From: Arcobacter aquimarinus
GTDB taxonomy: Bacteria; Campylobacterota; Campylobacteria; Campylobacterales; Arcobacteraceae
Direction: 5' to 3'
Assembly: GCF_013177635.1 (NCBI RefSeq)
Contig: NZ_CP030944.1
Span: forward strand, 2,294,001 to 2,358,000
Length of the DNA: 64,000 bases
In this document: one piece after another, positions 55,272 through 60,683 of the stretch
Layout: each line of letters starts with the position of its first letter
How positions within the stretch are numbered: position 1 is the first letter of the stretch
The notes under the pieces: model-generated
What the model saw: only the letters and a program-made list of their open reading frames with translations
Databases searched by the model: none
What the model was told of the DNA's origin: nothing
Made by a program: the position numbers and the translations under genes

Positions 55272-56312
55272 TTATAATATTGTTTTTAAATTATTCAATC
55301 TTTCACCAAATTCATAATCTCTTTCAGCTACTTTTCCTAAAAAATCTTTTAAATATTTAGGATGAAGTCCATATCCAGGTCTTACACTTCGTATATTATC
55401 ATTACTAAATACTTCACCCTTTTTTATATCTTTTGATACATAAAGACTTCTTGCAAATTGTCTTGATTTTTTCTTTTTTTCAGTCATACTATAATCAACT
55501 TTTCCTAAAAGCTTTTCACTATCTCTAACTGCTTTTATCATTTCTTCAAACTCTTTTTTATCTAAAGAAAATTCAGCATCAGCACCACCAATAGATTTAT
55601 CTAAAATAAAATGTTTTTCTATTACTTTTGCGCCAAGTGTTATAGCTACAATAGGTGCTGTTATTCCTAAAGTATGATCAGAAAAACCAGCTATCACTCC
55701 AAAAGTTTGTGAAAGATTTGGAATAGTTAAAAGATTTGCATCTTCAAGAGCTGCTGGATATGCACTTGTACATTTTAAAAGTATTATCTCATGATTTCCC
55801 ACGCTTCTACAAATATCAACAGCATCTTGTATTTCCTCAATTGTTGCAATTCCTGTACTTATAATAATTGGCTTACCTTTTGAAGCGGTATAGTGAATCA
55901 ATTCATAATCAGTAATTTCAAATGAAGCTATTTTATATGCACTTGGATTGAACTGTTCTAAAAAATCAACAGCAGTTTTATCAAAAGGGCTTGAAAAAAT
56001 ATCTATATTAATACTTCTAGCATAATCAAAAAGTTCTTGATGCCATTCCCAAGGAGTGTAAGCTTCTTTATATAATTCATATAATGTTTTATTATCCCAA
56101 AGTGTTCCACCTTTAATAATAAAATCTTCCTTATCACTATTTAAAGTCAGAGTATCAGCAGTGTATGTTTGAAGCTTTATGGCATTTGCACCTATATCTT
56201 TTGCAGCTTTTATAGTATCTAAAGCATTTTGTAAATTTCCATTATGATTTGCACTAAGTTCAGCTATTATATAAATACCATCTTTTTCTAAATCAAAATT
56301 ACCTATTTTCAT
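55272..56312 (-). CDS. pseI: Pseudaminic acid synthase PseI
   Basis: Condenses the 6-deoxy-altrose sugar released by PseG with phosphoenolpyruvate. 346 residues: NeuB-type TIM barrel (IIAELSANHNGNLQNALDTI, AIKLQTYTADTLT, GFSDHTLGITAPIVA, VIEKHFILDKSIGGADAEFSL) and a C-terminal SAF domain (ARSLYVSKDIKKGEVF, IRSVRPGYGLHPKY). The SFDKSAVDFLE-like SSPFDKTAVDFLE fits Pse rather than Neu synthases. ATG 56312 is chosen over GTG 56315 because GAGG lies 6 nt before it. It overlaps the formyltransferase gene. Confidence 0.92.
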   Translation of the reverse strand: MKIGNFDLEKDGIYIIAELSANHNGNLQNALDTIKAAKDIGANAIKLQTYTADTLTLNSDKEDFIIKGGTLWDNKTLYELYKEAYTPWEWHQELFDYARSINIDIFSSPFDKTAVDFLEQFNPSAYKIASFEITDYELIHYTASKGKPIIISTGIATIEEIQDAVDICRSVGNHEIILLKCTSAYPAALEDANLLTIPNLSQTFGVIAGFSDHTLGITAPIVAITLGAKVIEKHFILDKSIGGADAEFSLDKKEFEEMIKAVRDSEKLLGKVDYSMTEKKKKSRQFARSLYVSKDIKKGEVFSNDNIRSVRPGYGLHPKYLKDFLGKVAERDYEFGERLNNLKTIL

Positions 56313-56940
56313 CACTTGCCTCTTCTATTTTTAAAATATATTTCTTTTCATTCATATAAAAAAATGCTGGAAAATTATCATTATCAACTATCCTTAAAAG
56401 ATTAAATTGTTCTGCAATACTTTTTGAAATATCTAATTCACTATCTTTACAGGTTCTTTTTTTATAAAAAGTTTCTATTCCTTCTTGTTTTATAGGAACT
56501 TTATATTTATAATAATTATTAATAAATTCTAAACACATATTAACAATGTGATTAGCCTGTTTTTTTCTTAATTCATAATTGAGTTCATCCCCAGTAAGAT
56601 GTAATTCTTTTTGCATATATATATCACCACCATCTACACTATCATCAACTTCAAACATAGTAAAAGGAATTTTATTTTTATTTTCAAGGATTTGCCAAAA
56701 CATTGGTGCCCAACCTTTTCCTTGAGGCAAAGCACTTGCATGTATCACTATATTATGCTTATTTTTTTCTAAATACTTTTTCTCTATAAGCTTATGGTAA
56801 CTTAAAATAAACACTATATCAAAAGACTCATTTATATTTTGATGTTCAAAAAACAATACTGAATCTTTAATCTTATTTTGTAATTCCTTTGCAAAAGGTA
56901 TGAACCATTGATTCGGTGATGTAATAATTGCTATTTTCAC
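56299..56940 (-). CDS. Formyltransferase-family protein in the pseudaminic acid cluster
   Basis: 213 residues with the Fmt/sugar N-formyltransferase core: HASALPQGKGWAPMFW (His67, and the SxLP loop) and VDDSVDGGDIYMQKEL (Asp103). Formyltransferases use an Asn two residues before the His; here it is Val65, so catalysis may differ. It is placed between pseG and pseI, where PseH (N-acetyltransferase) would be expected and is missing. I infer that it formylates the C4 amine of the altrose intermediate, giving a 7-formamido pseudaminic acid. Overlaps pseG by 4 bp and pseI by 14 bp. Confidence 0.75.
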   Translation of the reverse strand: MKIAIITSPNQWFIPFAKELQNKIKDSVLFFEHQNINESFDIVFILSYHKLIEKKYLEKNKHNIVIHASALPQGKGWAPMFWQILENKNKIPFTMFEVDDSVDGGDIYMQKELHLTGDELNYELRKKQANHIVNMCLEFINNYYKYKVPIKQEGIETFYKKRTCKDSELDISKSIAEQFNLLRIVDNDNFPAFFYMNEKKYILKIEEASDENR

Positions 56941-58566: not shown

Positions 58567-59690
58567 TTCAAAATCTCTATAATTGATTGATAAACATAGT
58601 TTTGTTCATCTTGTGAAAAATTTGGATAAATAGGCAAACTTATTGCTTGTTCATAATATTTATCCATAACAGGAGTTAATTCATTTCCATAACCTAACTT
58701 TTTATAATATGGTTGTTTATTTATTGGTATATAATGATACTGTAAACCAATATTTTTCTCTCTCATTTTTAAAACAAACTCTTTTTTATTTAAATTAAAT
58801 TTTTCAAAATCTATTTTTATTACATATAAATGATAAGAACTGTTATTTGTAAATTCATAAAGAGGAGTTATAAAATCTGTTTTTGAAAAAAAATCATCAT
58901 ATCTTTTTGCAATAGAACGTCTAAGATATAAAAAGCTATCAAGTTTTTTTAATTGAGATAAACCCAATGCACAAGAGATATCTGTCAATCTATAATTAAA
59001 TCCTAATTCTGTCATATCATAATGCCAAGGAGCAATATCAGCTCTTGGACTCATACCATGTCCTCTTAAAAGAATAAGTTTTTCATAAATCTCTTTTGAA
59101 TTTGTAGTAATTGCACCACCTTCACCTGTTGTTATTTGTTTTACAGGGTGAAAAGAAAATATTGATATATCACTATACTTACAGCTTCCTGCTTTTATAC
59201 CTTCAAAACTTGCACCAATACTATGAGCGCAGTCTTCTAATATTTTGATATTATATTTTTCTTTCAAATATTTTAGTTTTGTTTGATTTACAGGATTCCC
59301 AGAAAAATGAACAACATAAATTGCTTTTATTGAAGAATCTTTCTTAAGTTCATCTTCACACAAATCTAAATCTATATTTCCATCTTCTTTAATATCTATA
59401 AAAATTGGCTTTGCATTTGCATATAAAACCGAATTTGAAGTAGCTAAAAAAGAGTTTGGAGTAGTAAGAACTTTATCGTTTTCATTTAATAAAACAAGTG
59501 AAGCCAAGTGTAAAGCAGCTGTTCCATTTGAAACAGCCACACAATATTTTGCACCACAATAAGATGCAATTTTTTCTTCAAACTCTTTTACTTTTGGTCC
59601 TGTTGTCAAAAAATCAGATTTTAAAACGTCTATTAAACTATTTATATCATCATCACTAATAGTTTGTTTTCCATAAGGTATAAAACTCAT
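58563..59690 (-). CDS. pseC: UDP-4-keto-sugar aminotransferase PseC
   Basis: Adds an amino group at C4 of the UDP-4-keto-6-deoxy sugar made by PseB, giving the amine that is then acylated. DegT/DnrJ/EryC1 PLP enzyme of 375 residues: YCVAVSNGTAALHLA, LEDCAHSIGASFEG, and Lys184 in FSFHPVKQITTGEGGA that binds PLP. IPYGKQTISDDDI is the usual PseC start. It abuts pseB with no gap. Confidence 0.93.
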   Translation of the reverse strand: MSFIPYGKQTISDDDINSLIDVLKSDFLTTGPKVKEFEEKIASYCGAKYCVAVSNGTAALHLASLVLLNENDKVLTTPNSFLATSNSVLYANAKPIFIDIKEDGNIDLDLCEDELKKDSSIKAIYVVHFSGNPVNQTKLKYLKEKYNIKILEDCAHSIGASFEGIKAGSCKYSDISIFSFHPVKQITTGEGGAITTNSKEIYEKLILLRGHGMSPRADIAPWHYDMTELGFNYRLTDISCALGLSQLKKLDSFLYLRRSIAKRYDDFFSKTDFITPLYEFTNNSSYHLYVIKIDFEKFNLNKKEFVLKMREKNIGLQYHYIPINKQPYYKKLGYGNELTPVMDKYYEQAISLPIYPNFSQDEQNYVYQSIIEILK

Positions 59691-60683
59691 TTAAATCTCT
59701 TTTATTAATTTAATTAGTTCTTCTTTATCTAGCCATTCTTTATTATTTCCAGAATTATATTCAAACCCTTGTGAAACTTTTCCTCCTATTTCACCAAGAA
59801 TATTGTGGTCATAATCTCGTTTGTTTGTAAACGTGATAGTTGGTGCGATAACAAAATGATCATCAAATTCAAAAGTCAAATGACTATCATCAGCTGGGCA
59901 CATTATCTCATGAAGTTTTTCTCCAGGTCTAATTCCTATTATTTTTTGTTCTAAATCTGGAGCCATTGCACTTGCCAAATCTACTATTTTCATTGATGGA
60001 ATTTTAGGAACAAATATTTCTCCACCTTGCATTCTTTCAAAATTTTTAAGTACAAAATTAACACCATCTTCAAGTGTAATCATAAACCTAGTCATTTTTT
60101 CATCTGTTATTGGTAGAAATTTATTTCCTTCATTGATAAGCTTTTGAAAATATGGAACTACTGAACCACGACTACCTATAACATTTCCATATCTAACAAC
60201 AGAAAATTGAGTATCTTGTGTTCCAACAAGATTATTTGCAGCAACAAAAAGCTTATCAGATGCAAGTTTAGTAGCTCCATAAAGATTTACAGGATTTGCA
60301 GCTTTGTCCGTTGAAAGTGCAATAATTTTTGAAACACCATTTTCTAAAGCTGCATCTATTACATTTTGAGCACCATAAATATTCGTCTTTATGCACTCCA
60401 TTGGATTATATTCTGCTATTGGTACATGTTTAAGTGCTGCAGCATGAATAACAAAATCAACATCTTTCATAGCTTTTTTTAATCTATCCACATCTCTTAC
60501 ATCACCAATAAAATATCTCATACATTTATCATCAAATTCTTGTGACATTTCATACTGTTTAAGTTCATCCCTTGAATAGATGATAATTTTATTTGGTTTA
60601 TAATTTTCAAGAAGAATTTTCGTATATTTTTTCCCAAAACTTCCTGTTCCACCAGTGATTAAAATATTTTTATTGCTAAACAT
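59691..60683 (-). CDS. pseB: UDP-N-acetylglucosamine 4,6-dehydratase (inverting) PseB
   Basis: First committed step: removes water and inverts C5 of UDP-GlcNAc. SDR-type, 330 residues. [11 protein letters not shown] (10-20), [13 protein letters not shown], and the catalytic [17 protein letters not shown] set (Asp126, Lys127, Tyr135) match FlaA1/PseB. MGSTP-type ending is replaced by [10 protein letters not shown]-like [11 protein letters not shown] and PGEKLHE. First gene of the six-gene pse run and preceded by a 108-bp divergent gap. Length is typical. Confidence 0.95.

What the first reader, a model, noticed from the sequence alone, without database searches (positions are those of the whole stretch)
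55272..60683. Pseudaminic acid operon with a formyltransferase in place of PseH
pseB, pseC, pseF, pseG and pseI are all present and overlapping, yet the acetyltransferase PseH that should act between PseC and PseG is missing. A formyltransferase-family gene overlaps both pseG and pseI. Formylation of the C4 amine would give a 7-formamido nonulosonic acid on flagellin. The usual catalytic Asn is replaced by Val, so the enzyme may be a distinct subfamily.
Basis: partly seen in the sequence, partly recalled or inferred. Interest (0 to 1): 0.65.

Follow-up and report, generated by a model that had tools for sequence, protein, structure and literature searches.

The report
Formyl-type pseudaminic acid flagellar sugar operon
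A bacterium's genes for the flagellar sugar pseudaminic acid contain a formyl-adding enzyme where the usual acetyl-adding enzyme should be, so its flagella may carry a formylated version of the sugar; many relatives carry both enzymes side by side with runs of G between them that look able to switch how they are read.

Summary
pseB, pseC, pseF, pseG, FT (formyltransferase) and pseI form one tight operon at 55272-60683; all five Pse proteins pass NCBIfam cut-offs. FT overlaps pseG by 4 bp and pseI by 17 bp. The single-contig genome has no PseH above cut-off and one NeuB-family gene, so FT is the only evident N-acyl enzyme for this sugar. The Asn-to-Val change is real and is a subfamily trait (V/I in 43 of 44 rows); the catalytic His and Asp are kept. 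There is a precedent: 'formyltransferase PseJ' is in the PDB (recalled: it leads to 7-formamido-pseudaminic acid in Anoxybacillus), but FT is only a remote relative of it. 'In place of PseH' does not generalise: 36 of 42 FT-bearing genomes of the phylum also have PseH, next to FT. Among them, runs of 8-18 G sit at 29 of 30 PseH-FT and 18 of 22 FT-PseH junctions; at the latter the tract decides whether FT and PseH are one protein. Genomes from four families have FT between pseG and pseI and no PseH. Best reading: FT formylates the C4 amine, giving Pse5Ac7Fo. No activity was tested. The G-tract FT/PseH cassette of relatives is the more novel part.

The parts
56299..56940 (-). FT: short (213 aa) formyltransferase, GTG start, overlaps pseG and pseI; V65 in place of the catalytic Asn, H67 and D103 kept
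   Evidence: PF00551 44.3 bits; alignments; model pLDDT 86.3, best fold match 1zgh Z 18.9
59691..60683 (-). pseB, UDP-GlcNAc 4,6-dehydratase (inverting)
   Evidence: TIGR03589 559 bits, cut-off 408
58563..59690 (-). pseC, C4 aminotransferase
   Evidence: TIGR03588 454 bits, cut-off 424
57856..58566 (-). pseF, CMP-pseudaminic acid synthetase
   Evidence: TIGR03584 339 bits, cut-off 206
56937..57854 (-). pseG, UDP-sugar hydrolase
   Evidence: TIGR03590 230 bits, cut-off 154
55272..56315 (-). pseI, pseudaminic acid synthase; the only NeuB-family match in the genome
   Evidence: TIGR03586 517 bits, cut-off 340; PF03102 search of the own genome, 1 match
53199..55256 (-). maf-type flagellin glycosyltransferase, likely user of CMP-Pse (inference)
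   Evidence: PF20157 Maf_flag10_N and PF01973
52307..53155 (+). flagellin gene, probable glycan acceptor (named by eye from the translation)
   Evidence: ORF translation
51275..52123 (+). flagellin gene, probable glycan acceptor (named by eye from the translation)
   Evidence: ORF translation

Best explanation
FT is an N10-formyl-tetrahydrofolate-dependent sugar N-formyltransferase that takes the place of PseH in this organism. PseB and PseC make UDP-4-amino-4,6-dideoxy-AltNAc; FT puts a formyl group on its C4 amine; PseG removes UDP; PseI condenses with PEP to give 5-acetamido-7-formamido pseudaminic acid (Pse5Ac7Fo); PseF activates it with CMP; the adjacent Maf protein loads it on flagellin. 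Shown here: gene content and order, no PseH over cut-off, a single NeuB gene, the FT fold, conserved His and Asp, recurrence of FT without PseH in four family codes. Inferred: substrate, formyl donor, position, and use on flagellin; the roles of the Pse enzymes are established knowledge.
For: All five Pse equivalogs over cut-off around FT. No PseH over cut-off in the single-contig genome and one NeuB-family gene, so no second nonulosonate synthase. G000, G223, G426 and G444 (four family codes; completeness 97-100%, G223 and G426 in about 90-100 contigs) have FT between pseG and pseI and no TIGR03585 match over cut-off; G223 and G426 have none at E<=0.001. MAG contig L009 has pseB-C-F-G-FT-I without PseH in its 9.8 kb (its genome was not searched). 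The same place holds PseH in G061, G102 and G072. In G026 and G014 it holds a PseH whose N-terminal stretch matches FT residues 177-206 (70% over 30), a likely scar of an exchange. Fold: 1zgh Z 18.9; sugar formyltransferases WbkC, ArnA, FdtF, VioF at Z 14.5-16.4. PDB holds 'formyltransferase PseJ'. The Pse of Pseudomonas aeruginosa 1244 pilin carries formyl on N7 (PMC6222762, passages).
Against: Val replaces the Asn that PseJ and VioF keep. FT is a remote relative of PseJ (31.5 bits against 59 for VioF and 53 for 1zgh). In 36 of 42 FT genomes PseH is also present, so FT may act on another amine. In G079 FT stands beside intact WbqC and methyltransferase genes (only fragments of them in G081); in G054 beside FT2 and a PIG-L deacetylase. 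G444, G079 and G081 have a sub-cut-off GNAT 4-6 kb downstream of FT. In G426 no PseF was found in the 16 kb read. No substrate, product or expression data.
Confidence: 0.66

Rival explanations
1. FT formylates a different amine (for instance C5 after loss of the acetyl group, or an amine of the free or CMP-bound nonulosonate), and C4/C7 is left unacylated or is acylated by an unrecognised enzyme.
For: FT usually co-occurs with PseH, often fused to it, which is odd if both do the same step; a PIG-L deacetylase with a second formyltransferase (FT2) is found in pse loci of relatives.
Against: The operon has no deacetylase and no acetyltransferase; the GNAT hits to PseH lie far away. FT and PseH replace one another in the same place.
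Confidence: 0.15
2. FT no longer does ordinary formyl transfer: with Val for Asn it is a formyl-THF hydrolase, uses another one-carbon unit, or is a structural or regulatory partner.
For: V/I at that position in 43 of 44 rows; the hydrolase domain of 10-formyl-THF dehydrogenase has Ile there.
Against: His67 in 43 of 44, Asp103 in 44 of 44, and a strongly conserved loop around them, unlike a decayed enzyme; the FT-without-PseH operons would lack an acylation step. Formyl transfer by 10-formyl-THF dehydrogenase to its phosphopantetheine arm is recalled, not looked up.
Confidence: 0.12
3. A distant GNAT of the genome acetylates the PseC product, so the sugar is ordinary Pse5Ac7Ac and FT serves another sugar.
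For: Two sub-cut-off GNAT hits exist in the genome.
Against: They score 40 and 21 bits against a 93-bit cut-off, cover only profile 60-150 and 90-140, and lie over 400 kb away; G223 and G426 have no match at E<=0.001.
Confidence: 0.07

Closest known systems
PseJ (PDB 6ci2, 6ci4, 6ci5, 6edk)
   Same: Short formyltransferase, aligned from residue 3 with the same short N-terminal half. Recalled (paper not held): Anoxybacillus enzyme acting on the PseC product towards 7-formamido-Pse.
   Different: Remote in sequence (31.5 bits, E 1.2e-6); PseJ keeps the Asn (N-L-H) where FT has V-I-H; other formyltransferases score higher.
1zgh, formyltransferase of Clostridium thermocellum, and the FT2 genes of relatives
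   Same: Nearest fold (Z 18.9, rmsd 4.0 over 204) and second PDB sequence match; also Val/Ile/Leu at the Asn place.
   Different: 22-28% identity between FT and FT2 in the alignments seen; FT2 goes with a PIG-L deacetylase.
VioF, ArnA, FdtF, WbkC: sugar N-formyltransferases
   Same: Fold; formyl transfer to an amino group of a nucleotide sugar (recalled and from entry titles).
   Different: Longer proteins (target lengths); Asn kept in VioF; other sugars.
Phase-variable 'formyl transferase domain protein' genes of Campylobacter (lgrA group; CJJ81176_1325)
   Same: Formyltransferase genes with G8-10 tracts in the same phylum (PMC6321876, section with Table 1; PMC6097035 and PMC13317227, passages).
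   Different: No function or link to PseH in the text seen; that they belong to this FT family is not shown here. The window has no run of 8 G.
PseH (TIGR03585)
   Same: Same place in the operon; same pathway step by inference.
   Different: GNAT acetyltransferase, another fold family.

Membership tests
PF00551 formyltransferase superfamily | Pfam curated cut-off and fold | tested here: met
   44.3 bits against 26.1; fold Z 14-19 to members in the 50 rows shown
PF00551 formyltransferase superfamily | Catalytic His and Asp (roles recalled) | tested here: met
   H67 in 43 of 44, D103 in 44 of 44 rows
PF00551 formyltransferase superfamily | Catalytic Asn two residues before the His (role recalled) | tested here: not met
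   V65; V 41, I 2, D 1 of 44 rows
PseJ | Formyltransferase in a pse operon without PseH (feature recalled) | tested here: met
PseJ | Close sequence kinship to PseJ | tested here: not met
   31.5 bits, below VioF, 1zgh, methionyl-tRNA formyltransferase, FdtF and ArnA
PseJ | Formylates UDP-4-amino-4,6-dideoxy-AltNAc | not testable with these tools
   needs an enzyme assay
Pseudaminic acid pathway | PseB, PseC, PseF, PseG, PseI equivalogs | tested here: met
   all over cut-off
Pseudaminic acid pathway | PseH acetyltransferase | tested here: not met
   no match over cut-off in the genome
G-tract FT/PseH cassette of relatives | Run of 8 or more G beside FT | tested here: not met
   none in the whole window on either strand

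The most novel reading that the evidence does not exclude
Across the phylum FT belongs to a modular, phase-variable N-acylation cassette for pseudaminic acid: PseH - G tract - FT - G tract - PseH paralogue, sometimes with FT2 and a PIG-L deacetylase inserted. Slippage at the second tract switches FT between a free enzyme and an FT~PseH two-headed enzyme, and at the first alters the PseH end before FT, so a population shifts between acetyl and formyl forms of its flagellar sugar. The window carries a fixed, formyl-only form of this system.
Probability: 0.45. Interest if true: 0.78.

Novelty: new variant of a known kind. Interest (0 to 1): 0.58.

Why it matters
The N-acyl group of pseudaminic acid is part of the surface chemistry of flagella. 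Here the third step of the pathway turns out to be an exchangeable place: acetyltransferase, formyltransferase, fusions of both, and other candidate acyl modules occupy it in close relatives. It gives a defined candidate for formylated flagellin, a second formyltransferase lineage beside PseJ, and a natural test of whether the classical Asn is needed. If the window's relatives and the formyltransferase genes listed as phase-variable in Campylobacter prove to be one family, it also offers those genes a testable function.

Tried and rejected
Rejected: FT as a general substitute for PseH (36 of 42 FT genomes have both). Rejected: FT as a close member of the PseJ lineage by sequence. Rejected: Asn-to-Val as decay of this one gene. 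Rejected: a recognisable PseH elsewhere in the genome. Left open: what the upstream tract does; in 29 of 29 PseH-FT junctions with a tract a stop in the FT frame lies between tract and FT, so that tract does not make a PseH-FT fusion.

Led nowhere: a plasmid search gave 101 records, the 20 listed at 25-28% identity; paper searches for PseJ with formyltransferase and for Pse5Ac7Fo with PseH found nothing; the PseJ paper, by a DOI from memory, is not held; the 50 rows shown by VIA-align hold no PseJ chain, which excludes nothing. Listed papers that I did not open include PMC3068675, PMC3025981, PMC7099621, PMC7785942 and PMC6959607. Rows dropped: one search used FT domains of at least 190 residues (44 of 52), of at least 150, PseH domains of at least 110. 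G059 and G329 (77-80 bits) were left out of the 42. One search leaves out L059, so it has 21 FT-PseH junctions with 17 tracts against 22 and 18; its junction counts were typed in, and related genomes are not independent, so its P value overstates.
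Full report
WHAT IS THERE. The window (2294001-2358000 of a single-contig 2.52-Mb genome) holds, on the minus strand, pseB-pseC-pseF-pseG-FT-pseI at 60683-55272, followed by a maf-type glycosyltransferase and, on the plus strand, two flagellin genes. All five Pse proteins exceed the NCBIfam equivalog cut-offs. FT is PF00551 (44.3 bits), matched from profile position 79 on because its N-terminal half is short. It overlaps pseG by 4 bp and pseI by 17 bp.

PSEH IS ABSENT. TIGR03585 finds no match over cut-off in the genome; the two weak hits are GNAT-type ORFs more than 400 kb away. There is one NeuB-family match, the pseI of this operon. PF00551 has four matches in the genome, one of them in this operon.

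THE ENZYME. An alignment of ten orthologues (two of them partial) has 72% mean column identity with V65, H67 and D103 invariant. In 44 rows across the phylum V65 is V in 41, I in 2 and D in 1; H67 is kept in 43, D103 in 44, N63 in 43. The AlphaFold2 model (7 sequences, pLDDT 86.3, pTM 0.85) matches formyltransferases: 1zgh first (Foldseek 6e-14; Z 18.9, rmsd 4.0 over 204), then HypX, WbkC, FMT, ArnA, LgrA and others. By sequence the best PDB matches are VioF (59 bits) and 1zgh (53), with PseJ at 31.5. In the printed alignments VioF and PseJ keep the Asn, 1zgh has Val and 10-formyl-THF dehydrogenase Ile at that place. So the Asn loss is a lineage trait, not a lesion.

PRECEDENT. The PDB entries named formyltransferase PseJ show that a formyltransferase has been assigned to this pathway before. 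I recall, and could not read, that PseJ of Anoxybacillus formylates the PseC product towards 7-formamido-Pse. In the library, a Geobacillus survey reports pse loci with no PseH orthologue in its flagellin glycosylation islands and formyltransferase genes in some islands (PMC5109656, passages); N-formyl legionaminic acid is reported from Halorubrum (PMC6137143, passages); and the Pse of P. aeruginosa 1244 pilin carries formyl on N7 (PMC6222762, passages).

THE PLACE IS EXCHANGEABLE. In the window's family (104 genomes) FT orthologues at 64-68% identity are in G028, G054, G079 and G081, besides the window, with a partial match in G051. Between pseG and pseI one finds FT (window, L007, L009), PseH (G061, G102, G072), or PseH with a piece of FT (G026, G014). 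That piece matches FT residues 177-206 at 70%, and this PseH groups with the PseH half of a natural FT~PseH fusion, L177 (SH-aLRT 82, quick tree). G028 has FT and a PseH over cut-off (136 bits) in one 366-aa frame, downstream of pseI; L010 has FT followed by a PseH over cut-off (135 bits). G079 has FT with intact methyltransferase and WbqC genes before pseI; G081 has the same FT with only fragments of those two. Other relatives have PseH-like GNATs with a short-chain dehydrogenase and an AMP-binding enzyme, or FT2 with PIG-L.

FT IN THE PHYLUM. A profile search of 397 genomes gave 44 with a match at E<=1e-20, 42 of them at 163 bits or more. PseH at E<=1e-22 occurs in 226 of 397 (218 over cut-off) and in 36 of the 42; the six without it are G000, G079, G081, G223, G426 and G444. 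In the 38 of the 42 loci that I read, a PseH domain lies beside FT in 35; with G028 that makes 36 of 42. G000, G223, G426 and G444 (four family codes) have FT directly between pseG and pseI; G426 showed no PseF in the stretch read, and G444, G079 and G081 have a sub-cut-off GNAT 4-6 kb downstream. On the FT tree the FT-only label needs at least three changes (starred branches; quick tree, 19 of 44 inner branches weak). So the window's arrangement is recurrent but a minority.

THE G-TRACT CASSETTE. In two families with small genomes (codes f2 and f3; probably Campylobacteraceae and Helicobacteraceae, my inference) the common layout is PseH - FT, often with a second PseH after FT. A run of 8 or more G on the coding strand lies in 29 of 30 PseH-FT junctions, 4 of 4 PseH-FT2 junctions and 18 of 22 FT-PseH junctions (which includes L059 of the window's genus and loci of other families); no C run of that length was seen at a junction. 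In the 38 loci L140-L177, 50 of 80 G/C tracts fall in junction windows that make up 9.5 of 588.5 kb (expected 0.5; species are related, so this is descriptive). In all 18 tract-bearing FT-PseH junctions both frames are open up to the tract; 10 of these 18 are one reading frame as sequenced, and 12 of all 22. At the 29 PseH-FT junctions with a tract a stop in the FT frame intervenes, so that tract changes only the PseH end. In f2/f3 the PseH genes before FT (34 rows with the middle ones, SH-aLRT 94) and after FT (17 rows, 98) form separate clades; the after-FT PseHs of L010/L141, L059 and L177 fall outside the latter. Formyltransferase genes with G tracts are listed as phase-variable in C. coli, C. 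fetus and C. jejuni 81-176 (PMC6321876, one section read; PMC6097035 and PMC13317227, passages), without a PseH link in the text I saw. A 2025 C. coli paper names both a 'methionyl-tRNA formyltransferase' and a PseH as unique to clade 2 (PMC12102941, passages). My searches for a described FT/PseH switch showed none in the titles and passages I saw; several listed papers were not opened, and subscription papers are not held. The window has no such tract.

MECHANISM. Shown: operon, missing PseH, fold, residues, exchange in one place. Inferred: formyl donor, acceptor amine, product Pse5Ac7Fo, and flagellin as target. Co-occurrence with PseH can be read as two enzymes for one amine (alternative acetyl and formyl forms) or as enzymes for two amines; the exchange and the FT-without-PseH operons favour the first, the fusions leave it open. 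That the tracts really vary within a population was not tested.

VERDICT.

Noticed in passing
L145-L165, L167-L177, L059: G8-G18 tracts at nearly every PseH/FT and FT/PseH junction of relatives; at FT/PseH junctions they decide whether the two are one protein.
   Followed up: yes
L058:10210-11578, L064:7712-9137, L065, L091, L097, L146, L149, L153, L162, L174: A second, 1zgh-like formyltransferase (FT2) next to a PIG-L deacetylase inside pse loci; could swap an N-acetyl for N-formyl, perhaps at C5.
   Followed up: partly
L068:9820-12698; also L070, L088, L106, L107: PseH-like GNAT (69 bits in L068, below cut-off; weak FeeM match) followed by a short-chain dehydrogenase and an AMP-binding enzyme; suggests another acyl group such as hydroxybutyryl (the other loci by tblastn).
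   Followed up: partly
L060:8059-9449, L089, L090, L100, L069: WbqC-family gene (Pfam in L060, tblastn 54-81% in the others), in four of the five with a methyltransferase, between pseG and pseI; maybe an amino-acyl substituent. In L061 (G081) only fragments remain.
   Followed up: partly
L064:10091-10705 and L065:7278-7892: PseH with a piece of the FT C-terminal region at its N-terminus, a likely trace of past FT/PseH exchange.
   Followed up: yes
L138:6001-6636, L139:1863-2498: FT homologue (54%) in viral contigs with no pse match in the stretches held; a phage might alter host flagellar sugar.
   Followed up: partly
L097:9258-10868: Natural PseF-PseG fusion, 536 aa.
   Followed up: no
window 60792-62894: 700-aa protein on the opposite strand next to pseB with no Pfam or NCBIfam match at E<=0.001; 31% identical over about 100 residues to a gene inside the G028 pse locus.
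   Followed up: no
window 51275-53155: Two flagellin genes of 282 aa in tandem, 94% identical, differing mostly in the middle.
   Followed up: no
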